Of a DNA stretch of 64,000 bases, positions 32,018-53,280 are shown piece after piece (positions within the stretch are counted from its first letter, which is position 1; every line of letters begins with the position of its first letter). Made by a program: the position numbers and the translations under genes. Source of the stretch: Kappaphycus alvarezii (lineage: Eukaryota > Rhodophyta > Florideophyceae > Gigartinales > Solieriaceae); assembly GCA_002205965.3 (NCBI GenBank), contig NADL03000534.1, positions 806,001 through 870,000 of the forward strand, read 5' to 3'. The notes beneath the pieces are model-generated. The model saw only the letters and a list, made by a program, of their open reading frames with translations. It made no database searches and was not told the DNA's origin.

Positions 32018-32211
32018 GCAAATCAACAAAGAAAGATTTTTTATCATGGAGAAGTACCGCAAAGTTGACTACCGTCCGCTGTATCGTTGAGGCGCCCATC
32101 CAGCCCTTCTCTTCGCAAATCAACAAAGAAATCTTTATTATCCTGGAGAAGTACCGCAACGTTGACTACCTTCCGCTGTATCGCTGAGGTGCCCGCCCAG
32201 GCCCTTCTCTA
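32018..32211 (+). repeat. Tandem duplication, two copies of 97 bp
   Basis: Two adjacent copies start at 32018 and 32115 with GCAAATCAACAAAGAAA and share GGAGAAGTACCGCAA and TTGACTACC. They differ at scattered positions. They lie just outside the pogo-like transposase remnant and may be subterminal repeats of that or another element. Confidence 0.6.
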
Positions 32212-34399: not shown

Positions 34400-37000
34400 G
34401 GCTGCCTTGAGGCGGTTGGCGGTCCGCTACCCTAGACGGAGAGGAGTTTGGATCACTAGGGGGAAGGGTGTGTTCAACGAGCGCGGAGATACCTTATTCT
34501 TGCAGTACCGGTGGATGACATCCCGGAGTACATTGTGCCGGCGCGTTTGTCCATCTTCATACTTACAGGTAAGAGGGTGTTTGCCGAGGGGGTCCAGAAG
34601 AGAGGAAACATCTGAGGAGCGCCGGGCGCAAACAGGGCAACATGAACGCCCAGAGAACATCGGGATACCAAGGCGAATGGAAGCGACAAATTTACAAGCA
34701 TCAGAGGACAAAAAGGTGCCTCAGTGGGGGTGAGTGAGTGCGGAAAATACGGAACAAGAAGGTTTGGTACGCAGAGAGAGCAGGTGGGCACTTTCAGCAG
34801 GGCCAGACGAAAGGGAAAAAAGTTAGACCTTAGCAAGATGGAGTTCAGAGGTGATGGTAGACTATAGCTTGTCGCCAGGAACAGGAAATCCGCACATTTC
34901 GAAGAGAGCAGTGCTGCTCAAGGAGGAGAAAAGGGAAGGATACCGATAGGATAAAAGAGATATCGCTGAGCGAGGGATTTCCTCCAGGTGACGATCGGAG
35001 GGGGCGGGAAGAAAGATAGAGAGGAGAGGGAACGTGTCGATGAGGGATGCGGCGTAAGCGACTTCAACGATGTCAAAAGTGTGAAGGAAACCAAGTCCAT
35101 ACAGAGACAGTAGAAGTAAAGCATGTACCCAAGCACGCTCTGAGTGGGGAACTTGCAGCTGCTGGAATAATTACCTCTCCCCCTCATCGAAGCAAACGGC
35201 TAAAGCCGTAGATTGACAGGGGGAAGTGTTCGCAGCATGTGCATGACCTTACCCGCACTGTCGCAAAAACGGTGGAATTGAAACGTAAGCTGAGCGCTAT
35301 CGATCCCCTGGAGGGCCGTAAAGATCCGGTCGATGTCCTTTTGAACAGTGGTGAAGGATTCAGTGACGTAAAAATCAGGGCCAATGGGAGACCCCAAGAC
35401 AGGGAAACCAGACGGGAGGATAAACGGGCACGGTAGGCGGATAGGAGGAGAGGCTAATGAAAGTGCGTGGAACTAATTCTTGCTCATGTTGAGCGTGACA
35501 CCGGAAGAAGCCCAACTCGTCTGGAAAAATACGCAGGGCTGTGCCAGCTTGGGAATGATGGACGAGGGTAGTAAAATCATCTGCGTACCAAGCATTCAGA
35601 GCGGCGATTACCTGTCATGAAAGCTTATAATCAATGGATGCAAAGAAAAAAAAACAACAAAGGGCCAAGAAGGTCCTCCTGCTGGGTACCAGTAGCGCTG
35701 AGAATGTGATAGGAGCCGAAGAGAAGCTCTGTGATGTCCCCGTAACAGCAATAGAACCAACGTGCAATACCAGGGCATATGTGGGGACGGAGTCCAGGAT
35801 GCGTTGTCTGGAGATGCGATTAAAGGCGTTGTGAATATCGACTTGGATAAGAACATTGGAGACACGCCGTCGGAGCCCACAGCGGTCGAAGGATCTATAC
35901 TGTGAATTGCACGGCGAAAATCGGCAACCGAGAACTTAGACGAATCAGGGAGGCAAGTAGGAGACTGCTACGTGATCGGGGCAGGTGGCGAAGGGTGGAG
36001 GTTCTGGAAGGAGCGGGGGGTAGCGTCGGTAGGAGGAAACGGAGCCTGAGCTTGAAGCAAAGCTGCGGTCGCCCGCTAGGGGCTTCTGCGGTAGAGGTGA
36101 CGGCGGCAACGGCGATGAAACGAACTCGTATATGGGGGGACAGGGGATGGGGGGAAGGGGAGAGGACTTGAAGGGGTGGAGGCGAAGATAAATTGGGCCT
36201 CAGCAAAAAGTTCATCACACAGGCGAGCGGATGATCAACTTATCGGGTCCCCCAGGGAGAGCAGGGATCTGAACGTCGCCAGCTGAGGCTGCGGGGACGA
36301 TTGTGTCTGAAGATGAGTTCGGAGATGGAAAGAAGCTCGAGGAGAACCCGGTCCATGTGGTAGTTGGACGGAGCGGAGATGAAGCGACGAGCGAATGAAA
36401 GTAGAGATCGTAGGCGGCCGCTTTAATTTGACGGTAAATATAGGAGAGAAAGGGGGTACGCAAGGACAGTACAGACCGAAAAGTTAGAGCAGGTTGAGCC
36501 GGTAGGGTGGGATTCAAGGAGACTGACATCTTAAGTTGATTTCATTTCAGAGTCGGAATCTGGATAAGGAATATGTTCAGGGGCAGCAAAGCGGCCTGCA
36601 ACACTGCTGTAATCGAGGGTAGGCTTGGGAGGGGAGGGAAAAATTTACGCGGAGAGGGCCATGGAGAAGGCGGGTATCGGGGCGGGGTAGGTGCAGTGTT
36701 ATGGGGACGAGCAGGAACAGAGATCCTACCTTCTGTATCGGGGGTCCCTGCCAGTGGACGGTGGTGCTTTTAAATGGCGAAGTTGGGAGAGATAGGGGGC
36801 AGCGGGTATATATCTTGCATTTTGCCGACCGAAGTGAGCGTAGAGAAGACAGCATTTCAGTTTCCTGTAGGGCAAGGGAAAAGGACGGATCCGGTATCCA
36901 AGAAGCAAGTGTCCGATTTGAGCCGCTAAATTTTGACTCGAAGACCAGACCAGACCACTTGTAATTCAGCAAGATTTTCGGAAACCGCAAGGTCGTGAAC
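34400..37000 (-). mobile_element. Non-LTR (LINE) retrotransposon remnant
   Basis: Minus-strand frames give reverse transcriptase pieces: RVSNVLIQVDIHNAFNRISR (RT palm motif with the first catalytic Asp) at about 35820-35880, then the WYADD catalytic motif at 35576-35590. Next comes LGSPIGPDFYVTESF with KVMHMLRTLPPVN at about 35200-35400. A C-terminal zinc-knuckle-like region follows at about 34480-34640 (CPVCARR, then GKHPLTCKYEDGQTRRHNVL), a layout seen in LINE-type elements of algae and marine animals. It is broken in many frames. The 5' limit near 37 kb is a guess. Confidence 0.6.
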
Positions 37001-38160
37001 GTCGGAGAATTTCAACGATGGCGTACAAAAGTTGTCCAAGTGCCGGGCGAGGGTCAAGAAACTGTTGTACGCGAGCTGTATGGAGTACAAGTCCCGTTAA
37101 GCTACACAGACGAATAAATTGTGGGGATCAGTTGTTTTAAAAATCGACCAGGACCCAGGAAAGCTACCACTAGATAGAGCTCGATGGAAAACGGACTGAT
37201 CCTGAACAACGAAACTAGAAAGTGATGAAACCGGAACGAAACACTTGTGGTCACTACCTAACAGTCCATTAGTGGCTCTGCGAACATTTGTCGAAGATAA
37301 ATACTTCAGAAAGGTATGAATTAAGCACTGGAAGACGGGACATAGGATTAGGTGCCTTGTTTGACCTGGCGGGATGGAGTACGGAGAAGGAGCGGTGGGA
37401 GGCGACTAGTGTGCAGTACTTGGCGATCTGCCTGAAGGAAGCGCCGAAGGAGGCTCGGAGTCAGGTGCATCAGTGGCAGTATGACTGGTGAGGGCGTTCA
37501 AGATGAGGCCCACCCCGCAGAACTGGGGGTTGAGCTGAAGTGAGGGTAGGAGAGCCTATGCAGAATTTGAATCGCGTAGGTCTGAGAGGAACAGGTCGAC
37601 AGAAGTGGGGCCAGACAATCCACGGTATCATTGAGGACGGATGCGGACTTCACGAGGAAGTCCAGAGATGAATGATGAGCGTGACAAAGATGTCGGCCGA
37701 AAACGCAGGCCAGCGACAAGAGGGCATGACACAGACACGAGATCACGGGGGCAGTGGTGGAGAGAAGTGATTGGAGAAGAGGGAGATCCTAAGGATTGGT
37801 TGTCCTGCAGCCACTGGTGAGATCGACCTGATAAAAAAAAAGAAGAAAAATAAAAACCTTAAAGTGGGGAGAAGAAAAGAGAGAAAAAAGAGGGCTTGCA
37901 GGCCAGCTAAAAACCTGCCCGAGCAACAAAGTGCGGTACGCAGGTGGATACGGAGAGCCCTTGAGAGAGAGAAGGAGTGGGAGTGGGAGGAAAAGAGTCG
38001 AGGAGGGAGCCAGATGAGGAAGTAGCTCGTGAATATCGGTCGGGAAACTAGTTGGCGCGATTGTCAACTGTCGCCCGACCCATTAGCCCCAATCTGTGTT
38101 CTACTTATTAAGGTTTACCTCTACTGAGATCGATAGATGCGCGAGGTAAACCAAATAGAA
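37001..38160. other. No feature recognised
   Basis: Purine-rich on the plus strand, especially at 37840-38030 with A and AG runs. It may be the 5' part of the LINE or a different decayed element; no domain is readable. Confidence 0.3.
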
Positions 38161-38468
38161 TTTATTTAGGTGAAAAAACAGCAGGGAAGCTCGAAAAGAA
38201 ACGGGGACAACGTCTGTTCAATTTCTTACATGGTAGCATCGTCAATTACTCCGTCTTCCCTGATTTTCTCGCCTTTCTCTCTTTCTTACATGGGAAATTC
38301 GCAGGCTTCTATCACTACCACCGATGCGCACGACAATCGCGTCAAGATCCTAACACTTCATTGCTCAGCGATCTACACCTGGTCAATTGCAGTTCGTGAG
38401 TTGATGATTCGTGATGATGTTGATTATATTCTCGGAAAAGAAAGATCAGAAGCACCTACAGCTGCGAG
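38160..38468 (+). mobile_element. 5' part of the gag gene of outer Copia element C
   Basis: The plus-strand frame reads MGNSQASITTTDAHDNRVKI, then AIYTWSIAVRELMIRDDVDY, ending GKERSEAPTAA. This matches the start of copia gag (UBN2-type: NYxxWxxxMxxxL, then the xDxWxxV region). The frame is cut at 38468 by the LTR of element B and resumes at 51969 on the other side of that element. The phase is kept across the insertion if one copy of GCGAG is removed. Confidence 0.6.
38464..38468. repeat. Target-site duplication, left copy (GCGAG)
   Basis: GCGAG directly precedes the left LTR. The same five bases directly follow the right LTR at 51969-51973. Five base pairs is the usual duplication length for copia integrases. 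Confidence 0.6.
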
Positions 38469-38812
38469 AAAAAGTCCGTTTAGGTTTCGATGATCTATCT
38501 TTTTTTACTTTGTTACAGTCAAAGAATCTAATTTATAATTCTCAGATAAGCGTTAAGAGTCCCGCGTAAACTACTTAAAAAGCAGGGTGTCCGTAAACAA
38601 AGATGAAATAAATCCCGGGAGATCCTGTTTGCACTGTTCTTTACACTTGTTCCTTACAATAAAAAAGCACACGGGCGCAAGTACCGTTGTTTAAGGTATG
38701 GAAAATAATAATTCGCATGGAAAATAATGAAGCGTTAATCGGTGACGGAGAGAGAGAAGAAGTACTCACGAATCCAGAGCGCTAAGTGATGGAACGATTA
38801 CATCTATGTAAC
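38469..38812 (-). repeat. 3' LTR of Copia element B
   Basis: This 344-bp segment aligns colinearly with 51628-51968. The shared TTCTCAGATAAGC block sits 72 bases from the left edge in both copies, and CAGGGTGTCCGTAA, TGTTCCTTACAATA, GCACACGGGCGCAAGTA and GGTATGGAAAATAATA follow in register. Just outside it, on the minus strand, AGCAAGGAGGG (about 38815-38825) is a fitting polypurine tract. The LTR begins GTTA on its own strand rather than the usual TG. Confidence 0.65.
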
Positions 38813-39199
38813 TACCCTCCTTGCTCTACAATTTGTGACTGACCGCTTGCATCCCTAGTCTGCCGCAATTTTTCTTGAAAAGTTGATCATTAAGTGGCCT
38901 CTATAGTATGTCTGCTGTTGTATTTGTGGTTTTACAGTTTCATACCCCTACAAAGCCTCCTTTAACCAAGGAACGTATAAAGTTACCACGAATTTCCACA
39001 TGTTTTCGTTTCGAAATTAAACCGCCTCCGAAACATTTTTCCTTGATTATACCGCTTTAGGTCAGTCGCAGAAGTCGATGGATAACCCAGTTCTTTTAAT
39101 AAATGCTTGACCCATAAAACTTCCTTAGTCCCTAGCTGATTCAATTACTGCAATGAAATCAGAATTGATTTTTTAGAGAGCGACTGCACTCTGCATTCT

Positions 39200-40720
39200 C
39201 TCTTCCAGCTTATGTTACATCTACCAAGTTGAAATCAAAATTACACTAGCAGATTTTTGATCATCAGGAAAAGTACTACAGTTTGAGTCTGCAAAACCAA
39301 CAGTCTGAGCTGAGCTTGGCATAAACGATAGTCCAAAATTCGCAGTACCATTCAGGTATCGCAGTACACGCTTAACTACCGCAAGAAGAGAGCGATCAAG
39401 GCAGAAACCACACAGAACCTATTAAAGATTACAACAGAAGCAGAAATATCCGGTATTGTTCGACGAGAGATAAAAAAGGCAACTGATAAGTTCCTGATAC
39501 CTCAATGTGTCGATGGGATTAGTACCCAAATGTTAAAAATACTCGGTGCGTAACGAATTAACACACATTTGGGTTGAAACCAGCTTATATTGACTCATTG
39601 CGAATTTTATAGAGTTTCAGATATATGCTTTTGCTGAGAGAGAAATTGAGATCCATCTAGTTGACAGAAATCAACGCAAAAATAGTAGTGAAATTGTTCG
39701 AGATCCTTAAAAGCAACAGTTTAACAATTTACCGTTTCAATTCCTCAAGTTATGACACGTTCCGGCCAGCTCGGAGGATATTATATACGTAAACAAGTAT
39801 CCAGACAGATCTCTTTGATAAAAAGCATTATTCACTGGTCAAGGGTACGAAACCAAGCTGATGCATGAGACGTTTACACTAGTCTTTCCAAGGCCTGGAT
39901 GAATTTTTTAGACAGTATAGTACCTTTTGAAGCATCGGGGCCTTATCCTCCTTGCATATTGCCCTGGCCATGTTGTGGAGGTATATAGACAACACTGTTA
40001 ATCTCTCCATGAAGAAACACAGTGCACACGTCAATCTGATGTATATCCAGGCTGGAATGCACTGCTAGCGTAAGAAAATCGGATACAGTGCTGAGGTCCA
40101 TTATCGGAGAAAATGTAGTATGATTATGTCCCTGTCGATATCTTTTCGCAACAGGACAAGCCTTGTATCGGCAAACAATTCCGCCGGCATTCTTCTTGCG
40201 CTAAAAAACAAATTTCATAGGGATTACAGTACCATTAACAGGCCTTAGGACAACGTTCTATGTCTGATGTTCTTGTAAAAAATCCAGTTCTGAATTGACG
40301 GCTTTTTTATTCGAATTAGTTTGGAATAGAAATTGCTTAGTGGCGTGTGACTGGATCAGATAGTTCCTTAGTATCAGTTATCACTGCTGAGACAGTTGCA
40401 CTTGTTGGACTGAAGAACTCTGTTGTTGTGCTTTTACTACGTGGATAGTTCCTCTGTATACTGTTAATTGTTATATTTATTTGCAGCTCATTTCTTTCTA
40501 GAGGATTAGTGCCATTTCATCTTCTGCAATGAAATGAATATAGGTAAGGATGTCACTTGCTTGCTCAGTATTAAAGTACGTTTCTTTGGAAGTTTCTTCC
40601 ATATAATCACGAACCTCGTCTGTCGCTGGTACCTGTGGTACCTGCGCAATCTGTGTTGTGATTTTCTGTACGGCAGCTGATGAGTGGGGGAATTTTGAGA
40701 GTTATCTTTCCAAGTACTCA
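39200..40720 (-). mobile_element. Copia B reverse transcriptase and RNase H
   Basis: Minus-strand frames give, across frequent breaks, RQDRDHTTFSPIMDLSTVS (RT start), LDIHQIDVCTVFLHGEINS (the copia HQMDVxTAFLHG motif with the first catalytic Asp), and a segment corresponding to KALYGLKQSSRxW. Near 39260-39340 the RNase H region reads YLNGTANFGLSFMPSSAQTV, then GFADSNCSTFPDDQKSAS, the copia RYLxGT and DADWAxDxxDRRSTS motifs. Not functional as it stands. Confidence 0.7.
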
Positions 40721-41479
40721 ATTTAGTGCAATGCGCAGTTGTTACCGTCTATGTCCAGAGTCCCACTAGACAACGAGAAACCAACATCTACATAACAAGA
40801 CTCACAGGGTGTTCAATTTACAGTTTTTTTAAGCAACCTGCGATGCAGTACCACAGCTGGCCGACGGCGAGGAGAAATAGCGGTGGTATAAATTGGGTTG
40901 GTAGGTGAGGAGTGATTCCTTGGACAGCTAGAATGCTCGAACTTTGAGAAGAAGAAGAATTAGTGGGTCAGGATTGCTGATTATCTCCTTCGGAGATGAA
41001 ATGGGTGTTAACCAACGACAAACTCGATCTTCATACTTGTATATAGACGCCGGGGTCCGGGGCGCTAAGTGTTAGTAAATATATCAACACTAGCAATGAA
41101 AGCAGTAGTCTAATATAGGATGGGGGGGGGTAAATTAAAAAAGGAACCCAGGCGGATAATCGTGGCTACGGCCAAAGTTGCCGTTGGCAAGTTCGCTGCA
41201 AATGAGAAAGTTGAAAGTCAGGTTCATAACCAAAACAGGGATGACTGTTTATTATGAGGCCCTATCGGCCAGGTAGGTATAAATATAAAGTAGCTAGGTT
41301 AGGGTTATCTGCGACGGCGGGGTACGTAAATTTGATGTCAGCCAGAAAAATAGACATGAAACTTATAGATAAGTAAGTGGACAATTGGCCCAATAGGTGT
41401 CTTTCACCTGCGAAAATACCAGGTCGAATTTGCGGGCAGAGTGGTCCGGAATATACGACCTCGGACTTACTCGTGTCGA

Positions 41480-41592
41480 AATGTCAAAGGAACCAAGACA
41501 ACCTGTCTCAAAAGCAAAACGGTGTAAAAGCTCGCCGTCGAATCATATTTTAGATGAATTAAAGGGGTATCGTTCTACAATCCTACAGATTA
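41480..41592 (+). repeat. Direct repeat flanking inner element E, left copy
   Basis: About 110 bases match 44418-44531 in the same orientation. Both contain TCAAAGGAACCAAGA, AAAGCAAAA and GATGAATTAAA or AATGAATTAAA followed by GGTATCGTTCTA. The copies are diverged, at roughly three quarters identity by eye. Confidence 0.55.
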
Positions 41593-41861
41593 TAGCAAAA
41601 AGCTACTCTTAACATGACTTCCCACATCCGAACACAACAAAAAGCAACACAGTATGCATATAAGCCAAGGATCTACCGCCCCAAACCGACAACGGAGACG
41701 TCTAGACGACGGTTCTCATCCAGACAGAGCCCTCAGAGCAATTCGCTGAACATATAACGCTCAATTTTCGGAACTCACCCAATACTACTTCGACTCAAAG
41801 AATCAACAGATCCGATACACAGCCTCGATAACATCAAACCTCAACTCAGTATAGATTCAGC

Positions 41862-43620
41862 ATGGACGCAGTCCACACAAACAAGATCTCAGTCCTCAAG
41901 AAGACCAATTACACGCCCCAGGTACCCTTCATCCATGGCGTTTCCGCATCCACCGATGCCCCTGACATGGTTACCGAAGACTCACTGATGCCAACTGAAC
42001 CCCACCACAAGCAAAATATTCACCAAAAAACAAGCAATACTAGTAGTTACGCTCATAGATTCTTTTCTAGATGATATTAACGATATCTTTGTCCGCAGAA
42101 ACCACCTTCCTCCCACACCGTTCCAACTAATCACAGCTGTTACCAATTACCCTGACGAAAAACAAGATTAAGACCGTCGCACGCTCATGGCAGCAGCGGA
42201 AAATACCAAATTCACAGAAGACATGACCGTAACGGAATACCTCACCGCATACTAGAGAATACGCGCCAAAATGATGACAGCTACCCGAACATAGAGGACC
42301 CCCTCACTACCGTAGAATTCATGGCAGAAGGCCTTCGGTGCAACTCTACCACCTTCACCATCGCAATGATCATGTATGACAACAAACCAAAGGATCCCAA
42401 CGAGCGCGTCAAACGCCCTACTGGAAACTTTCGCATCCATCCAAGCGCAGTCTGTGATAGCACATAGCATCCCCGTCCCAGTCGACACAACTGGCGCCGC
42501 CCTCACGGAATTCTTGAAGCAACTCACCGCCATCCGAGCCGTCAAAACCAATAGTTCATGTCTACTTGGGAACCCACAAACCCCGACACTCTAAAGACCA
42601 GAGTCGCCACTCAAACCATCCCAGAATAGCCAATACAAGCCGCCCGGCAAATTTATCGCCTTGCACTACGATGAAGTCATGAACCAACTTAAAGACACAC
42701 TTGATAGCAGCACGAAAGACAATACTCAGGAATATCATGCTGACGCTCATCAGTTTCTCCTTGACTCTCGGGCTCACATCACACAAATTATTACCCCTAG
42801 TCCCATCATGTTCCGCCTAAACTCACCCATCACGACCTCAAATGCCACAAACACCGACACACTGTGTACTTCCGCCGGAATCATCACGCTAAAGCCGGTT
42901 ATGAGTAAGAAAATTCGCATGGTCCCTGTCAAATCCCTCGTTTAGGCGCAATCTTCTTTCTGTCCATGATATCTCGACATACCACGGATTCGTGCTATTA
43001 TCGAGCAACACCGCCTACGTCATCTATGCCCGAAGCATGAAGCCACAGATCATCCTCACTGCTCCCTGGGACCATCAATGGAGCGCTTACGTAGTACACG
43101 ACATACTTTACAACTCCATCCCACAAGCTAGTTTATACGTCCTCGACAAATTCGTGGGCCGTAAACAAAAACTGCGCACGACCAAAACTCAAACGAAGCC
43201 TCCACCCAACCTAATCACGCGGAAAAAACATCCAGCGGCCCCACCGAATCCCCCAGCCACCCAGGACAAAAAATCCCGGTCTGTGGGCTGCTGCACACAA
43301 CAAAAAACTGAACACTCTGGAAGAAGAAGAAACATTCAAATGGGTGCGTAACAACATGGTACGCCAAACCGCCCGAGTCATTCCCTTAAAAATGATGTAT
43401 CGCTCTAAGATATTCCCATCCCTCCAAATAGACCGCAAAGCACGCCACTCTGTCCGCGGAGACAGCATAAAAGTAGACCTGCTCCACAACCCAGAACACA
43501 AAAACAAAGTACATGACAGAAAAAACCACTGCGTGCAAGCTCCTGTCCATAGCAGCGAATTACAACTCGAAAGTAGATTCAATTCGACATCTCCGCGACA
43601 TACCCTAATTAGCCATACAC
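41862..43620 (+). mobile_element. Gag-like region of inner LTR-type element E
   Basis: Plus-strand frames from MDAVHTNKISVLKKTNYT continue, with stops and shifts, through NTKFTEDMTVTEYLTAY and ALLETFASIQAQSVIAHSIP, which resemble the helical core of retrotransposon gag proteins. A basic, proline-rich stretch follows (43170-43340). I see no clear RT or integrase on this strand, so the element is either non-autonomous or decayed. It lies between the integrase and RT of Copia B and is flanked by the direct repeats at 41480 and 44418. Confidence 0.4.
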
Positions 43621-44417
43621 CTAATACAAACCAGTCTATGTCAGGGAACAATCAAAGTTTAGCGGAGGATTAACAAACCCAAAAAACACTGGAATCCTGC
43701 TATGCAACCTATAAGACACACAACCCCCGCCGCCCACACCTACCACACCGGCTCATCGCTCTCCTAACAGCACACGGCAACAAAAAAATCACTCTGAACG
43801 CTGCTTGTTCCACAAATTCCAAAATGAAGCTCCCATTCTCATTACAGTCAGTATGGAAGACTTCCTACTCACATCCTCAAACCAGCGCAATATCGATGAA
43901 CTATTCACTGTTTTAAAGAAATCATGAAACATCTCGAATCTAGGACACCCCACAAAATAATTGAAATGGAACTTACATACAACACCAGCAGGACAAATCC
44001 ACGTATTATGCCACATTTAATCCACCCCATTCTCCACAGAACAAAAATGGCCCACAGAAAACCAAGCCACAGACCAGTCCCGAGAACAACAACTGACCAC
44101 ATGTTGCGGACGCAACATTGCTCCTACCGAAAGAAGCTAAATATTTACATTTCCAATCTATGCTGGGGAACTTCCACTACTTGACGGATAGTGCACGACT
44201 GTATCCAATTGGAGTGAACAAGTTAGCATAACATATGCAGCACGCAATATTATCGACTACTGCGCTTGTTCATGCAATATCTGAACACCACCAGCAGACC
44301 CCACAGCATCCTTGCACCCAACCTAAACAAAGAGCGTGACCCACTGCGTGAATTCGATCCATAGTTTTCGTCCAGGACTTTTAAAGGAAGCAAGAACTCC
44401 AACAAAGCGAGAATCAA

Positions 44418-44531
44418 ATTCACGCTCAAAGGAACCAAGAAGCCTGTCCCTAAAGCAAAAAAGAAGTATAAAAGATTATCTTCGCATAAGATTTTAAATG
44501 AATTAAAGAGGTATCGTTCTAAAATCATACA
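44418..44531 (+). repeat. Direct repeat flanking inner element E, right copy
   Basis: Counterpart of 41480-41592. In plus-strand translation the copies give related basic sequence (PVPKAKKKYKRLSSHKILNE versus PVSKAKRCKSSPSNHILDEL), so the repeat may be coding or an LTR fragment. Confidence 0.55.
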
Positions 44532-44714
44532 GGATATACAGTGCCAAGACCCATTGCGGTCTGCACGCGACATAAATGATCTTACTGAACATTGCAGTAC
44601 CTGCGGATAGCAGTGGTATTGTCTGTACAGAGAACTAGATACAAGAAGATCACCAAAATCAGCTCTGCCGGTGGCAATACAATATGAGTGCCAATTGCCC
44701 TACGCTCAAGTCGA

Positions 44715-45625
44715 TTACGATTCCCTCTTTTCCATACCACGCGAGACCCGGAAAATAGTTATCATGGATACCAATATCCCTTGAAAAAATAGCAGCCTGC
44801 TGTCGAAAAGCCATAACTCGTAAAAATTATTTTCTAGACACTCAGTGACAATGAATTCTTCACTTTTGGAATCTAAATTATTTCGTTTCTCCCGGAAACA
44901 ATCACCCAAGCATGGCAGGGAAAAACTCATAGATTGTCAATTATCGGCTTCATGCCAACAAGCATTTCGAAAGGCGTGCTCAACTGATTGATGCGCAAAA
45001 ATAGATTACGGGTGTCAGCGGCCTGGATCACAGCTTCGGCCTAAAAATAGTGAGGAATGCCAGCATGATTAAGCATGGTGGAGCACTTTTCATGAGGGTG
45101 CCATTTTCCGGTTCTCCAATACCGCTGTCTCTTGTTTTGTGTACGGTGTGGTGCGGCTTATTTCTATCCCTCTCTAAATCAAAAGGTTTTCGAAGGCAAT
45201 TTAATCTCCAGCATTATCACTTTGCCGACGCTTCAAATGAAAATCAGCATTTCGATCTAGTCACACCTGATATATCATAAATTCATATTTCACGCAACTC
45301 TTAGCTGCAATCGGGGCAACTTTGATGTATCCACTGTACTCATCAATACATGAAACATAGTAAAAAGACCCCTAACTGGAATAATTTGACAGGGGTCCAC
45401 ACATATCATTGTGAACTGTATCGCCCACTTTTGTGGCTTTTGTCGTTTCAAATGGCGCGCAGAGCGTGATTGCTTCCCCGTTGCAAAGCTTCGGCACAAC
45501 TCAAGGGTTGCTGGAGGCACTCTGTCTTTCGAATCTTGGATGGCAGTGGAGTAAAGTATCCCCCTCACAGATTATCTGTGCGAATGCCACAATCTTGTAT
45601 GCCATAGCCCCTCGTTAAACTTTTT
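44715..45625 (-). mobile_element. Copia B integrase
   Basis: The minus strand starts with the pre-integrase motif FNEGLWHTRLWHS. It continues with a zinc-finger-like cysteine region, then VGDTVHNDMCGPLSNYSS (first catalytic Asp in the HxDxCGP motif) and SFYYVSCIDEYSGYIKVAPI (second motif, FIDDYSR-like). Further along, STPFEMLVGMKPIIDNL and YELWLFDSRLLFFQGILVS correspond to the TPYE and YRLWDPxxxxIxxSRDV segments after the core. Many frame breaks. The upstream side ends about 80 bases from the DIRS-type element. Confidence 0.7.
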
Positions 45626-45702
45626 TTTCCTCACCATTGAAACTCAGCCCCAGTTGCAGCTCCCTTCTTTTCATTTCTCAACTGGGTACAATACATTTTT
45701 AT

Positions 45703-45901
45703 GTCAAGTGTAGACGAAGTTTATGCGGATGAAAACAGCGTGCAGTGAATAGCGAAGGGGTCCACTATGGTGGCCCACATGATGCGTACGTGTAATGCGA
45801 GGATGGCTTACAGCACTTAGGTTTCGATCATGAGCCGCCGTCGCAAAACCCCGTCTACTTATGTGGTCGGGCGCCGATTGGAAATCGGCATGCCTCTCTC
45901 T
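45703..45901 (+). repeat. Left direct repeat of the DIRS-type element
   Basis: 199 bp starting GTCAAGTGTAGACGAAG and ending TGCCTCTCTCT. It is identical to 49765-49950 apart from 13 extra bases (TACTTATGTGGTC) at about 45856-45868. It includes the hairpin GCCGATTGGAAATCGGC near its end. Confidence 0.85.
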
Positions 45902-45994
45902 TTAGAGTCCCCAGTACGACTGGCGGTAGGCTTCTTTCAAGTAGGTCAAAAGGATTCGACCAAGATTAGCGCCGGCGCTATTCAGGACTAAATT

Positions 45995-46617
45995 ATGACT
46001 ACCCCCTTTGAGAAGAGCCTCGTGTTGGCCGACGAACTTTTGGGCAAAGCCAAACTTATCGAGAAGGGCAAGTCAATGGATGAAGCGGGGATCGGCCCGG
46101 AGTGGATGGTAGCATACGCCAGAATTGCCGAACGCAACGACCGTGATCGACGATTTGGGCTGAGCCGTTACCCTTACGAGCCGGGACCTTCCGTCGCTGC
46201 CTTCACTGGAGGCCTCTTCGATCACCGGGAATGGCCATTGCGCAAAGGTCTCGAGCGCCATCAAAGCATGAGAGCCGTCTCCGAGTACGAGTGCAAGTAC
46301 ATAAATGCCGCTGGCTTTTGGTCTTCTTTCCAAGAGACGGCTATCTCACTTCGACAAGAGTCTTTGGCTCAGAAGAAGTTGGAAGATGCCGAAAGTTTGA
46401 CGTTTGGGCGATCATTGCTAACCGGTACTGTTTGCGAACTGTGGGTCTCAGAGCAGAGTTCTACAAGCTTGCAGCGAATGATCCAACGTATGCCAAGATG
46501 ATACTTCCCACGCTGGAAAAGAGAACGGATGTCGCGGCGGCCGACAACCTCGACGAGACTATGTCAGAGCTAGACTCTCATATGCACACGCAACTACTGA
46601 AGGCAGTTGCCACCTAA
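45995..46617 (+). CDS. DIRS-type element ORF1 (gag-like)
   Basis: The ATG at 45995 (MTTPFEKSLVLADELLGKAK) opens about 207 residues of charged, mostly helical sequence ending LDETMSELDSHMHTQLLKAV at the TAA of 46615-46617. A one-frame change occurs at about 46380. There is no zinc knuckle and no catalytic motif. Position before the RT ORF supports a structural, nucleic-acid-binding role as in other DIRS elements; that is inference. Confidence 0.6.
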
Positions 46618-46690
46618 GCGCCAGTAATGCCACGAAAAAGAATAAGGGCAACAAGGGCAACGGTGGTAACGCCGATGGCCAGTAGGCCCT

Positions 46691-48644
46691 ATGGGTCGTC
46701 GACGCCCTCTTTGGTTTGCTACGCAACGGCAAGCCGTCGAGTGGCGTCGCCTGGGCGCCTCGGAATACCTCTGCCGAGCCGTTCAGTTTGGTATATACGA
46801 GGCACCATGCGTCCCGTTCAAAGCTGGACAGGGCGAGGAGCTTTCGGACATACCTCAATCGCCGGAGGACAAGTAATTTGCCTGGAAAGATCTAGCAGAA
46901 GGGTGCGAGTCGGGGATTTACGAAGAGATTACCGAAGCGCATGCAGAACGGGCGAAGAAGAGCGGGGCAATCGTGTCCTCGGCGTTTACCGTGTGGCAAG
47001 ACACCGGAGAAGGGGTGAAGGGAAGGTTTGTAGTAAACCTGTCGAAGCAGTCAAAGAAATGGAAGAAGGGCTCGGTGCGGATGGAATCCGTGTCCGAATT
47101 CGCCACAAGTATCCAGAAGGGAGACCATTTGCTTTCGATGGACATCGAGAAGGGATACAGGCACTTCCGGTTGCATCCTGCGATGCGCGATTGGTTCATA
47201 TTCCACTACTACGGGAAGTACTATCGTTGTATTGCGCTACCCTTCGGGTGGGGGAGGTCCCCATTGTGGTTTACTCAGTTAATGACCGTGTTTCTACGGC
47301 CGCTTCGCCAACTTGGCTATCGCGTCCTGTGTTACCTAGACGACTTCCTTATAGCCCCGTCACCCTATGGTCAGGTAGCCTCACTGACACACTGTGCAGT
47401 GGCGAAGGAAAAGATCGAAGCGCTGTTGCAGTCGCTAGGGCTCCGCCGACACCCTACGAAGGGAGAATGGAATGGGTCACAGGTGGTGGAGCATCTCGGC
47501 ATTGTTATCAACACCAAGGAAATGACCTTTTCGGTGGTCCTCGAAAGGCAGAGAAGGTTCGACGGCTAGCGGGAAAGCTATTGAAGGAGGTCCGGTTCGG
47601 GAAACGATGGGTGACATCCCAAAGGCTGCGCAGCTTTTGTGGTGTATGCGTGTCTCTTACGTTGGCTATGCCATGGGCAAGGTTTTACACTCGTGCACTC
47701 TATTGGGACTTGGGCTCCAACCGCCCTCGAGACAACCGCGGCCGATGCCGCCTCTCACATCAGTCGATCAAAGACCTCAGGTTCTGGAAAGGGCTAGCCG
47801 AACACGACCTTGGCGGTCGACCAATGACCCAGCCCGTACCACAAGCGGCCATGCACACAGACGCGGCCGATATGGGGTTTGGCGGGACACTGAATACCGA
47901 CGACTTGCGACAAGGGGTACCCGGGATGTGGTGTTCGCAAGGAGTATGGAGTTGGAAGGATCGCGCGAAGAGTATAAGCTTAAGGGAACTGAAGGCGATC
48001 AGAAAGCTACTCCTAGGACGTTTGGGACAACGGATTGCAGCTTCCTCCGTCACGGACTTGCTTTTGCATGTCGACAATCAACCCGTGACGCACATTGTCA
48101 ACAGCCTAGTGTCAGCAAGCCGCCCGATGATGCGGGAGCTGCGTCGGCTGAAGGCCGTACTAGATCGACTAGGAATCAGGGTGAAGGCCGAATGGATCCC
48201 TTCCGTCGCGAACAAGTTTGCCGACGCTCTATCGCGACGCTTCCCCCGCGGCGACCTGCAGATTCGCAGGCAGCTGCGGCGTTCCATCGCGGATGGGATG
48301 AAGGCTCCAGTAGACGTTTTCAAGTTCCGCCCACTAGGCGAACATCCATCCTACCTCCGACGAGCGTCATGGACGAGCTACAGAAGGAATGGGACCGGGA
48401 AACAGTGCGTCTTTTGTGCCCACCGGTGGACCTGATTGGGGCGACCGTGCGCAAGCTGGCACTCACGAAAGCGCCAGCGCTGCTGTTAATACCCGACTGG
48501 CCGAGACAGCCATGGCACCAGGCCGCAATACATTTGGCGACGAGGGTGGAGAGATTAGAGCAGCCGCCGACGGAGGTGTGGGCAGCACAGCGGAAGCTCA
48601 ACCCGCAGTGGAGGCTGCTTCAGCTGGAAATCAATCTCGCCTAA
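46691..48644 (+). CDS. DIRS-type element reverse transcriptase-RNase H
   Basis: From MGRRRPLWFATQRQAVEWRR the frame has one in-frame TAA at 46874-46876, then the RT core: LLSMDIEKGYRHFRLHPAMR (first catalytic Asp), ALPFGWGRSPLWFTQLM, and LCYLDDFLIAPS with the catalytic YxDD. After a frame change near 47540, the RNase H domain shows all four acidic residues: MHTDAADMGFGG, SISLRELKAIRKLL, LLLHVDNQPVTHIVN and VANKFADALSRR. A second change near 48340 gives a C-terminal segment (LCPPVDLIGATVRKLA, then LLLIPDWPRQPWHQ) typical of DIRS-order pol proteins. It ends at the TAA before 48645. The frame changes could be sequencing error or early decay. Confidence 0.85.
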
Positions 48645-49702
48645 CACGGGCCGGCGCCCGTCTAGCAATTAATCGCGCTGCTTCCTCCATGGTATCTCTT
48701 GTAGCTGGGGACACTCCTGGTGCGCGTATGTCCGCCGAAATGGTAGAGCAGTTTGCTTGGAGCGACCGGACAACAGCCACGCGTAATTCTCAATGGACAG
48801 CGTGAGTTTTGTTCAGCCTGAAGGACGTGCGGTACTACCTGTGACTGAAGGAAGTTTGGTCGCTTTCATCGGCTGGCTTCGATTGGAAAGGGATAGGAAC
48901 GGAAGAAAGGTGGGAGCGGCTTCCCTGCCGCAGTATCTCAGCGCTGTTCGACAGATGCAGCTAGTGCTCACTGGGGAACAAGTTCCTCCGTACCCATTCT
49001 TGAACCACGTCATTCGGGCATACAAGAAGTGGGAAGAAGAGCAACATCCGTCGGAAGAAATCCGTTGTGGTATTCCTGCGGACAGTGTGCAAGCGATCTG
49101 GGCGCTTGGAATGCAAAGCACCTCCAGTATGGAGGTTCGGGACTGCTGCGCTTGTGTGTTTGCCTACTGCTTTAATGGTCTGAGAGAAAGCTCAGTGATG
49201 TCTTTGTTGGAATCTCAAGTTACTTTGACCGACGACCAAGTAGTGGCACGCCTTTCCGTGGTCAAGGGGCGTCAAGCAAGCCGAGAACAACTCGTATCCT
49301 ATGATCGAATTTCTACGTTGGCTTCTCCTTTGGATCTTCTCGCGCGATGGGCTAGTATTCGGCGTCCACATTTCCGATTCTTTGCTCTGCCAGGAGAACC
49401 TGTGGAATGGACAAAGGGTAGTTTGACTACCGGGCTGCAGCGTGTGCTCAAGACTTGAACCTGCAACCCCCCCCGACGGCAAATTTACTTCTCATTCGTT
49501 ACGAATCGGGGCGCACACCGAGCAGGTTCTATTAGGTATTCCTTTGGAAGTTCGTCTGGCCAGGTTTGGCTGGGGTCACAATAGCGCAGAGATGGCTTCT
49601 CTTTACTTTGACCGTACTATCAAGACTACCGCGGCGTCGTTCTGGTTTTTCGGTGCTGGCCCTTCCGGGCCGCCCGCTTCCATCCCTCCTCCGCAAGCAT
49701 AA
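48640..49702 (+). CDS. DIRS-type element tyrosine recombinase
   Basis: It has the catalytic signature of tyrosine recombinases: an arginine in FNGLRESSVMSLL (about 49172-49210), the HxxR box in SHSLRIGAHTEQVLLGIPLE (about 49490-49550), the later histidine in ARFGWGHNSAEMASLY, and the nucleophile tyrosine in SLYFDRTI at about 49603. A core-binding region (LVAFIGWLRLERDRNGRKVG, then LPQYLSAVRQMQL) precedes it. The start is unclear: an overlapping frame from about 48640 (RAGARLAINRAASSM) joins near 48793, and another change falls near 49455. In DIRS elements this enzyme inserts a circular DNA intermediate without target duplication. Confidence 0.85.
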
Positions 49703-49764
49703 GTCGGGACGTTGGGTGCTGGCACCCGTCCGACATGGAGTGGTACTCCCAAGCTGGGGTTTTC

Positions 49765-49950
49765 GTCAAGTGTAGACGAAGTTTATGCGGATGAAAACAG
49801 CGTGCAGTGAATAGCGAAGGGGTCCACTATGGTGGCCCACATGATGCGTACGTGTAATGCGAGGATGGCTTACAGCACTTAGGTTTCGATCATGAGCCGC
49901 CGTCGCAAAACCCCGTCGGGCGCCGATTGGAAATCGGCATGCCTCTCTCT
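49765..49950 (+). repeat. Right direct repeat of the DIRS-type element
   Basis: 186 bp, identical to the left copy except that it lacks the 13 bases TACTTATGTGGTC. It starts 62 bases after the recombinase stop. Confidence 0.85.
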
Positions 49951-50640
49951 CCCACCCACCCTCCCAGGCGGACCACTACGTGGGCCGCCCACATACCTCT
50001 CTCTTTGTGTATCGTGTAATGCGCTGTAAGATCGATAATAAGATGTGCTGAAAGATCGTACAAAATATGATACGGTTCGTCGACGGTTTTTGTCTAAAGC
50101 CGACGAATAGCACCATCGGTTTTAAGAGGTTGCCCCCCCTAAGAACCCCGAGGGGTGGTGCGGGGGTTGGGATGGGTGGGGGGCGGTGGTGTAATCTGTA
50201 AGCTGTAAGCTGCAGGACGTCGATGGAGCTAGCTGAATAATTTAGTCCGACCTTCGAAGGAGCGGGGGTTTCGCCGGGTTACCTGGCGGGGAACCGGAAA
50301 CCCGCTTCGTTGAGGGCAATAAAACACTTGAAAAAAAGCGTTTTCACCAGTGACCCGATAAATAATATGCCACCCTACATGATAGAACACCCATAATTGT
50401 TAAATCACAGAGTAAATCTATGAGGACATAGAGCTAAACAGGAAATTAAATTCAGCTCCATTTCAGGTATGAACAACCCGTTTAAAAAATCAGCCCTCAT
50501 ATGAATGGGGAACGTCCTCTAGTTTTCAAAATAACGTTAAAAAAGCGTCACCACACTTATTTTCGTCCACTGTACGATAACAGACACGGATAATCTGCCG
50601 ATTCGGAATGTCTGCGATGTTGGGACCGCATTATTTGCCT
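49951..50640. other. Right flank of the DIRS-type element, junction with Copia B
   Basis: Two inverted repeats with hairpin potential stand out: TTCGTCGACGG pairing with GCCGACGAA at about 50076-50107, and GGGGTTTC pairing with GAAACCCGC at about 50262-50302. Between them is a G-rich tract (50150-50200). The exact right end of the retroelement cannot be called. Minus-strand Copia B protease sequence begins by about 50640. Confidence 0.4.
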
Positions 50641-51465
50641 TTAAAAATGTATTCGGATAAACCAGAGTCGATTAAAGTATCAAACACTGATCTCTCTCAT
50701 GCAGGCGGATCATAAGAGCAGAACCGCCACTGCCAGAGGCATTGGAGCCGCGTCCATAAAAGGCAGCTCCAAAAAGGCCTATATTTAGCTTTTCTTTCGG
50801 TTCAGGGCAGTTCCGTATGTAAAGCCCCAGGTCTCCGCAGTAGTGGCGTTTACTTCTGTCGTATTTCTTACCTTTTGTATCTCCTTGATGTCGAAAGTCC
50901 ATGCAGTAGGACGACAGTGCAACTAACCGTTTCCATGTATCTCTATTAGTACTGGCTGTGATCCATTGCTTCTCTTCATACTCTTGCAGTAGACGGGCTG
51001 TGACCTTTTTTAAAGTTAATTCTTTTCTTGATGTCTACAGTGCTACTACAGGTCCGTACGAGAACTTCGTTTTCTCCCCAAATGCAGAGAGAAAAACAGC
51101 GACTTGCATCTGGTCGGCGCGTTGGTACCAAATTCCTTATAATCGATTGAGTATATTCTAAACTGATCTAAAAAATCTGATATTACTTGAGCTGCATACC
51201 TTAGCCGGTTATGTTTCATCTAGAGCTCGATATCTGTGAAGATTGTAGAGACTGGATGTCCCTTACGTAATTTCTTCCACATCCAAAAAGTATTGTCTTT
51301 GTCTGACAGGCACACTCTGAGCGCCTGGATTCAAGCCCTTTCATGATCAATGCAAGAGATTTCAAAAACTTTAGTTTTGTAATAGCACTCCGTGGATGGT
51401 CATCATCTTCTTTCCAAACAAAAATCGTCGTTACAACGAATAGTGCACCTTGAGAGGTCAACACA
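50640..51465 (-). mobile_element. Copia B gag and protease start
   Basis: Minus-strand frames give a gag-like helical region (about 51465-50910) and then RSKRHYCGDLGLYIRNCPEP, a CCHC-type zinc knuckle with one cysteine changed (about 50807-50845). Shortly downstream (about 50655-50680) LIDSGLSEYIF carries the DSG active-site triad of a retroviral-type aspartic protease. The 5' LTR lies immediately upstream. Just inside it TGGTTATGG (minus strand, about 51614-51626) is in the position of a tRNA primer-binding site. Confidence 0.65.
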
Positions 51466-51627
51466 ACCTTCCGTTACAGCATCCCACAACTCAAAATCGT
51501 CACTTACTTGTCCGTAAAACTTGTAGTATTTCTTGCCTTCTTCTATTTTTCATAACTTCTCAAAAAATTGTTGATACGGCTGAGGAGATAGGAGTCTTTG
51601 AAGGGCTTTTTCTGGACCATAACCAGA

Positions 51628-51968
51628 AAGAAGTCGGTTTGGGCTTCGATAGTCTATCTTGTTCTTTACTCGTTATAGTAAACGAATCTAATTTATATTC
51701 TCAGATAAGCATTAATAGTCCGCGTAAACCACGGTAAACAGCAGGGTGTCCGTAAGAAAGAGGAACTCCATTCCGAAATATCCTTTTTGCACTATGCTGT
51801 GCTCTTGTTCCTTACAATAGAAAGGCACACGGGCGCAAGTAATGTTTTCTTAGGTATGGAAAATAATAGTTCGCATGGAAATCAATAAAGCGTTAAACAG
51901 TGACGATAAAAGAAAAGATGTACCCATGTCCACAGCACTAAGTGAGGGAACGATTCCATCCACTTAAC
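51628..51968 (-). repeat. 5' LTR of Copia element B
   Basis: 341 bp colinear with the left LTR at 38469-38812, with many substitutions and a few small indels. It is followed directly by GCGAG. Confidence 0.65.
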
Positions 51969-51973
51969 GCGAG
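51969..51973. repeat. Target-site duplication, right copy (GCGAG)
   Basis: Matches 38464-38468 at the other end of Copia element B. Confidence 0.6.
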
Positions 51974-52600
51974 GAACAAATGGAACATTTATGACAAGAA
52001 GCCTCGCGCTCATATCGTCTTGAATCTTACCGAGTCCGCTGCTATCACCATCGACGACGTTTTGGACTGCTATGGAACTCCATTGGATGTCCTCGAAAGG
52101 CATACTTCAAGGACAACCTCCAAGCCGAACTGAGCATTCGTTCAAAGCTCAACCTTTGGAGTTCGATGTTGCTAAAGACTTCGATGAAAACCTCGACAAG
52201 TTCTAAAAGATGTGTTTGGGATCTTGCCAGACCTGGTTATCCCGTCAATCGGATGACCAAATGACTTTATTGCTTAATACTTCTATCAGAATGTAAAACT
52301 TTGAATTCTACGGATGGAGGCAAAATTAAGACTCTTAGCGAGTTTTTTTTGGTCTCATACGTTGGAAATTGGAATTTAAGGATTGAATAAGAAAAAGAAT
52401 GGAAATACTCCCCCTCAGCACGCAAAGGGTTTTAAACAAGAAACAGGAACAGAGGTTTTGGCGTCGACAGGCGTGACGTGGAATGTTGTAATTGTCATAA
52501 GAAGGGTACTCTAAATTCACAGCCGGTAAGCGGTATGTGAGTGCTAGAGATATCGCAAATCATTCAAGCTATCTCATGGTAGATGAATAGTCCTTAAGTA
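51974..52600 (+). mobile_element. 3' part of gag of outer Copia element C
   Basis: The plus-strand frame opens NKWNIYDKKPRAHIVLNLTE, the central copia gag signature (Wxxx, DxxAxxxIxxxL), and continues DDVLDCYGTPLDVLER with later frame breaks. Near 52483-52516 a CCNCHKKGT segment is the remains of a CCHC zinc knuckle. Downstream to about 53.2 kb no pol domain could be read; the minus-strand Copia D begins there. Confidence 0.6.
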
Positions 52601-53280
52601 TGCGTAGACTTGCAAAGAAGGTAAAGGAATTTCCGACACTAGCTGTAGAAGGAAAAAGTATGGTGCTTGTTATCCTAGGGTTCAATCAAATCTATGAGAT
52701 TGATAGAACCAACAAAAAAAAACTTGAATTTGGAGTATTTAGTAGTCGCAGTTTTCACGGGTGCTCCAGATGCTCGAAATTGTCAGAAAGGTTGACATAA
52801 TAGGAAGAGAGTGGCAAAGATGATCCTTATGGTTCAATCCGAAATGCATGTTGTATTTCAGTATCGATTTTGAACGAAATTAGGTGTCTACTTGATAAAA
52901 GATCTGCAAGTTCAGCGATGGTATGGTTTGGATGTATCCCTGTTCACTTCAATAGTCTCAGGCAGGGGGGTTCCCGGATGCGCTCCATAGGTATTTCAGT
53001 CAGCTCCGCACCCTCTTTAACAGAGAAGCTATCCGTGATCAGAGACTTGATTGGGCCTTCAAAATAATCCCTAAAATCAATAGAGGCTGGTCAATGCAGG
53101 TGGTTTCCGGGCTGACCATTGCATCCACCTGACTACTACCCGTAGTTTACCTTGCGAAGCTATTTTTGCAATAAAAATTAGTGCTGTAATAGAGGTTTTA
53201 TGCCGGGTCTGGGGCAAGTTAAGTTTGTGTGGCTGAGGTGTTTGAACTCCGCTCTCAGAAGGGCTATACAGTAAAATATT
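52601..53280. other. No domain recognised
   Basis: Probably decayed sequence of Copia C. A plus-strand frame at 52600-52800 is open but matches nothing firm. Confidence 0.3.

What the first reader, a model, noticed from the sequence alone, without database searches (positions are those of the whole stretch)
38160..52600. A 13.5-kb Copia composite sits inside the gag gene of another Copia element, with readable insertion order
Seen directly: colinear ~343-bp direct repeats at 38469-38812 and 51628-51968, flanked by GCGAG on both outer sides. The outer sequences are two halves of a copia gag on the opposite (plus) strand. If the 38469-51968 block and one GCGAG are taken out, the gag frame of 38160-38468 runs in phase into the NKWNIYDKKPRAHIVLNL segment, exactly the order expected in copia gag. 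Inside the block, minus-strand gag, protease, integrase, RT and RNase H are in order but pushed apart by two other elements. Inferred order: Copia C, then Copia B into C, then element E and the DIRS-type element into B.
Basis: partly seen in the sequence, partly recalled or inferred. Interest (0 to 1): 0.75.

Follow-up and report, generated by a model that had tools for sequence, protein, structure and literature searches.

The report
Nested Copia retrotransposons, layered by age
An old, broken Copia retrotransposon jumped into what looks like the gag gene of an older, mostly deleted Copia element and was later hit by two more mobile elements; this layering is real but is an ordinary kind of genome debris.

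Summary
Repeats 38469-38812 and 51629-51968 are LTRs 82.5% identical (K2P 0.20), with a perfect 5-bp duplication, GCGAG, outside both. Copia B, minus strand, lies between; its gag, integrase, RT and RNase H match other Copia ORFs of the same 336-Mb genome (best E 1e-19 to 6e-31). Copia C's right flank matches host Copia gag (best score over 1277 ORFs reached by 1 of 300 shuffles). The left flank has no significant match of its own (63 of 150), but keeps the gag phase and, against that gag, falls just ahead of the right one. C is a remnant: only weak RT and RNase H traces follow, and its left side stops at another repeat. The order C, then B, then E and the DIRS-like element is supported. The DIRS-like element is young (153 of 153 repeat columns identical; 19 other copies at 95-97%) and lacks inverted terminal repeats; E is probably another decayed Copia, its edges unresolved. 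Nested LTR retrotransposons are long known; interest is low.

The parts
35187..38020 (.). Older dispersed repeat (11 other places match its right end) that abuts the left remnant of Copia C; not part of C
   Evidence: in nine fetched copies the similarity ends at 38008-38033 in window coordinates
38021..38468 (+). Left remnant of Copia C, probable 5' part of gag (open piece 38170-38466)
   Evidence: no significant match of its own (145 and 436 of 1000 shuffles against two gags; 63 of 150 over 1277 ORFs)
38464..38468 (.). Target-site duplication GCGAG, left copy
38469..38812 (-). Copia B 3' LTR
38813..38825 (-). Polypurine tract next to the 3' LTR of B (read by eye)
   Evidence: sequence
38805..39607 (-). 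Copia B RNase H and 3' end of pol, with stops and frameshifts
   Evidence: best E 1e-19
39672..40332 (-). Copia B reverse transcriptase
   Evidence: Pfam RVT_2 E 2.8e-12; host Copia best E 6e-31
41484..44538 (+). Element E, probably a decayed Copia inside B; end repeats 41484-41594 and 44426-44538; outer edges not resolved
   Evidence: RT-like match 43781-43942, best E 6e-4
44751..45527 (-). Copia B integrase
   Evidence: best E 1.5e-26
45698..50345 (+). Young DIRS-like (tyrosine-recombinase type) retrotransposon inside B, direct repeats 45698-45855 and 49760-49917
   Evidence: (RVT_1 E 5.9e-14); its left end is set by the repeat alone
50346..50506 (-). Copia B protease/pre-integrase side, weak
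   Evidence: five ORFs, E 0.009-0.045; the best one runs on past the DIRS-like element's end, so part of it is spurious
50708..51549 (-). Copia B gag with degenerate zinc knuckle
   Evidence: best E 7e-22
51614..51625 (-). Primer-binding-site-like TGGTTATGGTCC next to the 5' LTR of B (read by eye)
   Evidence: sequence
51629..51968 (-). Copia B 5' LTR
51969..51973 (.). Target-site duplication GCGAG, right copy
51974..52540 (+). Right remnant of Copia C gag (open piece 51975-52130; knuckle-like CCNCHKKG in 52436-52537, by eye)
   Evidence: 1 of 300 shuffles reaches the best score over 1277 ORFs; 0 of 1000 against each of two gags picked beforehand; the knuckle piece is not significant
52591..53064 (+). 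Possible collapsed pol remnant of Copia C: RT-like 52621-52704 and RNase H-like 52894-53052
   Evidence: 4 of 200 and 6 of 200 shuffles reach the best score over 42 ORFs; tblastn E only 2.6 and 0.28; suggestive only

Best explanation
Copia B integrated, minus strand relative to the window, into the gag gene of an older Copia element C by ordinary integrase-mediated insertion, which copied 5 bp of target (GCGAG). B then decayed, its two LTRs drifting apart by about 17%. A second Copia-like element, E, landed between B's integrase and RT, and most recently a DIRS-like tyrosine-recombinase retrotransposon landed between B's protease side and integrase. Without its inserts B is about 5.1 kb, taking 40800 and 44539 as its edges against E. 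Shown: the LTR pair, the duplication, B's domain order, and the near-identity of the DIRS-like element's repeats. Inferred: the integrase mechanism, the identity of C's left half as gag, E as a Copia, and E before the DIRS-like element.
For: LTRs and TSD. Relict LTRs elsewhere with nearly the same ends. B's gag, IN, RT and RH match host Copia ORFs. C's right half: three host gag ORFs are its three best matches among 1277 ORFs, 1 of 300 shuffles reaching the best score. Against that same gag, the left half's best alignment ends just ahead of it, with 15 residues between the aligned blocks in C and 16 in the host gag, and the phase fits. The DIRS-like element: no difference in 153 repeat columns (99% over 158) and 19 other genomic copies at 95-97%. 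E's repeats differ by 18%.
Against: C's left half has no significant match (145 and 436 of 1000 shuffles; 63 of 150), and neither half rings a Pfam gag. By phmmer the right half's best E is only 0.17. tblastn of host ORFs gave no hit in C's gag stretches at E <= 1e-3, at E <= 1, and nothing convincing at E <= 5. B's LTRs do not start TG and end CA. No second copy of C's gag was found.
Confidence: 0.9

Rival explanations
1. The two LTRs come from two different insertions of the same family, joined by deletion or recombination, and the GCGAG match is chance.
For: The LTRs differ by 17.5%, more than expected for a recent single insertion; 5-bp matches occur by chance in 439 of 20,000 random site pairs with slack.
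Against: Both outer edges carry the same 5 bp with no slack needed (203 of 200,000 random pairs); the gag phase is kept across the block; a colinear set of B domains lies between the LTRs.
Confidence: 0.05
2. The flanks are not a Copia gag; B inserted into unrelated sequence and the gag reading is a chance resemblance.
For: The left piece is not significant and no Pfam gag model rings; phmmer E for the right piece is 0.17.
Against: The right piece's three best matches among 1277 ORFs are host gag ORFs, and 1 of 300 shuffles reaches the best score; RT-like and RNase H-like traces follow in order on the same strand (4 and 6 of 200 shuffles).
Confidence: 0.07
3. Assembly artefact: repeats of a Copia-rich genome were wrongly joined.
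For: The genome is full of Copia (8199 first-look RVT_2 candidates), where misjoins are likely.
Against: The LTR search and the search with C's right part found no near-identical second copy, so B and C offer little to misjoin.
Confidence: 0.02

Closest known systems
Nested LTR retrotransposons of plants (1491 pairs in 12 genomes, PMC6911290: abstract and passages seen)
   Same: LTR element inside another LTR element; [quoted passage not shown]
   Different: Here the target is a coding region, which that study reports as not commonly targeted; the host is an unnamed eukaryote and the outer element is reduced to a remnant
Ty1/Copia superfamily (Pseudoviridae)
   Same: gag, integrase, RT, RNase H in that order between LTRs, RVT_2 reverse transcriptase
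   Different: Many stops and frameshifts; LTR ends are not TG...CA
DIRS-order (YR) retrotransposons: DIRS1, PAT, Ngaro (PMC3266345 and PMC4157794, passages seen)
   Same: RVT_1 reverse transcriptase, downstream ORF resembling a tyrosine recombinase by eye, direct repeats
   Different: No inverted terminal repeats found (so not DIRS1-like); no methyltransferase found in the ORFs scanned; full A1-B1-A2-B2 set not seen

Membership tests
Ty1/Copia LTR retrotransposon (element B) | Pair of LTRs with target-site duplication | tested here: met
Ty1/Copia LTR retrotransposon (element B) | Integrase upstream of RT/RNase H (Copia order) | tested here: met
   IN 45527-44751, RT 40332-39672, RH 39607-38805, all minus strand
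Ty1/Copia LTR retrotransposon (element B) | RVT_2-type reverse transcriptase | tested here: met
   E 2.8e-12, 47.2 bits against cut-off 31.6
Ty1/Copia LTR retrotransposon (element B) | LTR ends TG...CA (usual, not strictly defining; recalled) | tested here: not met
   ends read GTTA...ACTTTTT on the minus strand
Ty1/Copia (element C) | Copia gag | tested here: met
   right half only: 1 of 300 shuffles over 1277 ORFs; left half not significant
Ty1/Copia (element C) | LTRs of its own | tested here: inconclusive
   no LTR pair around C in the window self-comparison at E 1e-3, but its left side is cut at about 38021, so a pair is not expected
Ty1/Copia (element E) | Copia pol and LTRs | tested here: inconclusive
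   RT-like piece E 6e-4, 4 of 12 probes; three other pieces no better than shuffles; 114-column end repeats 79% alike
DIRS1-like retrotransposon | Inverted terminal repeats | tested here: not met
   the only inverted pair in 45600-50400 is a 21-nt internal palindrome
PAT/Ngaro-like YR retrotransposon | Split direct repeats A1-B1-A2-B2 | tested here: inconclusive
   A-type repeats and a 36-nt repeat found; B1 ahead of A2 not found
PAT/Ngaro-like YR retrotransposon | Tyrosine recombinase | tested here: inconclusive
   no Pfam or PDB match of that kind to the ORFs; motif by eye only, recalled

The most novel reading that the evidence does not exclude
B and C are last traces of Copia lineages that died out in this genome, while other Copia lineages multiplied to thousands of copies: the LTR search found only two relict relatives of B's LTR and the searches found no second C gag, so the locus is a fossil layer from before the present Copia expansion.
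Probability: 0.35. Interest if true: 0.25.

Novelty: new member of a known kind. Interest (0 to 1): 0.12.

Why it matters
It gives a relative chronology of four elements at one locus, useful for dating transposon waves in this genome. It changes no general understanding of mobile elements.

Tried and rejected
Rejected: E's end repeats as parts of another element of the window (the self-comparison pairs them only with each other). Rejected: DIRS1 proper for the young element. Rejected: the 76-bp match on contig C99 as a second copy of C; the 2.2 kb fetched around it holds no other similarity to C's flanks beyond chance-level words, and none of its ORFs matches C's gag pieces. No information: Pfam on most decayed pieces, Rfam, tRNA scan of the window; the phmmer part printed nothing. 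RPN11 against the PDB and the RT search (96 proteins of 225 candidates, no organism named) did not name the host. The printed table was cut in its middle (rows near 40.0-40.3 kb), so best E-values from it are the best shown.
Full report
Setting. The window is G000:C530:806001-870000 of an unnamed eukaryotic genome of 336 Mb in 884 contigs. Pfam hits outside the block, in 8 of 10 ORFs scanned, are ordinary nuclear genes such as Dopey, exportin 7, amino-acid permease, GDPD and RPN11. Copia is very common here: the RVT_2 search had 8199 first-look candidates, of which the 150 scored were all over the cut-off.

The LTR pair. Repeats 38469-38812 and 51629-51968 align over 337 columns with 32 transitions, 27 transversions and 10 gap columns (82.5% identity, K2P 0.201). 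GCGAG lies directly outside both. Moving both edges by up to four bases gave no other match of 5 bp. Without slack, 203 of 200,000 random site pairs share 5 bp; with slack of two, 439 of 20,000 do. A genome search with the left LTR gave 4 places: the two LTRs here and two relicts at 74-75%. The relicts sit in two copies of one larger repeat, 86% alike over 3.3 kb, and their similarity stops within about 10 bases of the LTR ends inferred here. One inner edge is uncertain by about three bases. The ends are not TG...CA.

Element B. On the minus strand from 51968 downwards, the order is: LTR; a PBS-like TGGTTATGGTCC (by eye); gag with a degenerate zinc knuckle, 51549-50708, best E 7e-22 against host Copia ORFs; a weak protease-side stretch (five ORFs, E 0.009-0.045, the best of them running past the end of the DIRS-like element); integrase 45527-44751, best E 1.5e-26; RT 40332-39672, Pfam RVT_2 E 2.8e-12 and best E 6e-31; RNase H to 38805, best E 1e-19; a polypurine tract (by eye); LTR. 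The B pieces add up to about 5.1 kb if its edges against E are near 40800 and 44539. B holds many stops and frameshifts. The closest RT relatives in the genome, of 150 scored among 1918 candidates, are 50% identical.

Element C. The right flank piece 51975-52130 has three host Copia gag ORFs as its three best matches among 1277 ORFs (scores 56, 55, 55); 1 of 300 shuffles reaches 56 over the same set. Against two of those gags alone, 0 of 1000 shuffles reach the score, but these had been picked. By phmmer the best E is only 0.17. The left piece 38170-38466 is not significant (145 and 436 of 1000; 63 of 150). Its best alignment to the same gag ends at residue 45, and the right piece starts at residue 61; by count from those coordinates, 15 residues lie between the two aligned blocks in C and 16 in the host gag. 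The phase is kept. Three other right-flank pieces were not significant. Further right, RT-like (4 of 200 shuffles) and RNase H-like (6 of 200) traces follow on the same strand within 1.1 kb (tblastn E 2.6, 0.28); I read C as a collapsed element, which is suggestive only. On the left, a dispersed repeat reaching back to at least 35187 ends near 38020, so no 5' LTR of C is seen. DNA 51974-53000 gave 1 match and protein 51978-52130 gave 1 match, both the locus itself. The left-flank DNA search gave 13 matches: the locus, 11 places of the dispersed repeat, and one 76-bp match to 38039-38114 on contig C99. That stretch is followed by nothing like C's gag. The protein search with C's left half did not complete. 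Host Copia ORFs gave no tblastn hit in C's gag stretches at E <= 1e-3 or E <= 1, and nothing convincing at E <= 5.

Elements inside B. The DIRS-like element carries an RVT_1 RT (E 5.9e-14) and direct repeats 45698-45855 and 49760-49917 with no difference in 153 aligned columns (99% over 158). A search with its right part gave 41 matches, among them 19 other near-full ones at 95-97%, of which 18 end within four bases of one another. In 9 of 9 fetched copies the shared sequence stops at GCGTTTTC, which is 50345 here (read by eye). No inverted terminal repeats were found. The recombinase is by eye only. Element E has end repeats differing by 18% over 110 columns and one RT-like match at best E 6e-4, seen with 4 of 12 probes; three other pieces did no better than shuffles. 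Its peptides also look like Copia protease by eye. E's edges against B are not resolved, and 40800-41484 is unassigned.

Order. Nesting gives C, then B, then E and the DIRS-like element. Repeat divergence (18% against 0%) gives E before the DIRS-like element; PMC7251063 (passages seen) reports that about one fourth of nested elements show higher LTR divergence than their hosts, so this last step is inferred.

Novelty. PMC6911290 (abstract and passages seen) reports 1491 nested pairs in 12 plant genomes and calls nesting common. The present locus is another example; insertion into a coding region is reported there as not common, but is not new.

Noticed in passing
G000 contigs C161, C884, C514, C774; C530:1015348-1024844 and C349: Copia RT matches recur at nearly constant spacing (5.8-6.1 kb in C161; 6.48-6.56 kb in C884, C514, C774; 4.63 kb in C530; 4.7-4.8 kb in C349), as if Copia elements form head-to-tail arrays, perhaps sharing LTRs.
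   Followed up: no
35187-38020: A G-rich dispersed repeat at least 2.8 kb long, whose right end matches 11 other places at 73-82%, ends against Copia C; its type is not known.
   Followed up: partly
38039-38114: 76 bp just left of C's gag match contig C99:236065-236140 at 78% with no gag following there; it may be a short relic of another repeat.
   Followed up: partly
L003, L004: A relict LTR of the Copia B family lies inside a larger repeat of which two copies, 86% alike over 3.3 kb, were found.
   Followed up: partly
41484-44538: Element E has an A+C bias on the plus strand (GC skew -0.14 to -0.39, AT skew +0.10 to +0.39 in the 300-base steps from 41400 to 44399), unlike its surroundings.
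   Followed up: no
40800-41484: Stretch between the B pol and E that matches neither; it may belong to E's 5' end or be a further small insertion.
   Followed up: no
32018-32210: Tandem duplication of about 96 bp, 89% alike.
   Followed up: no
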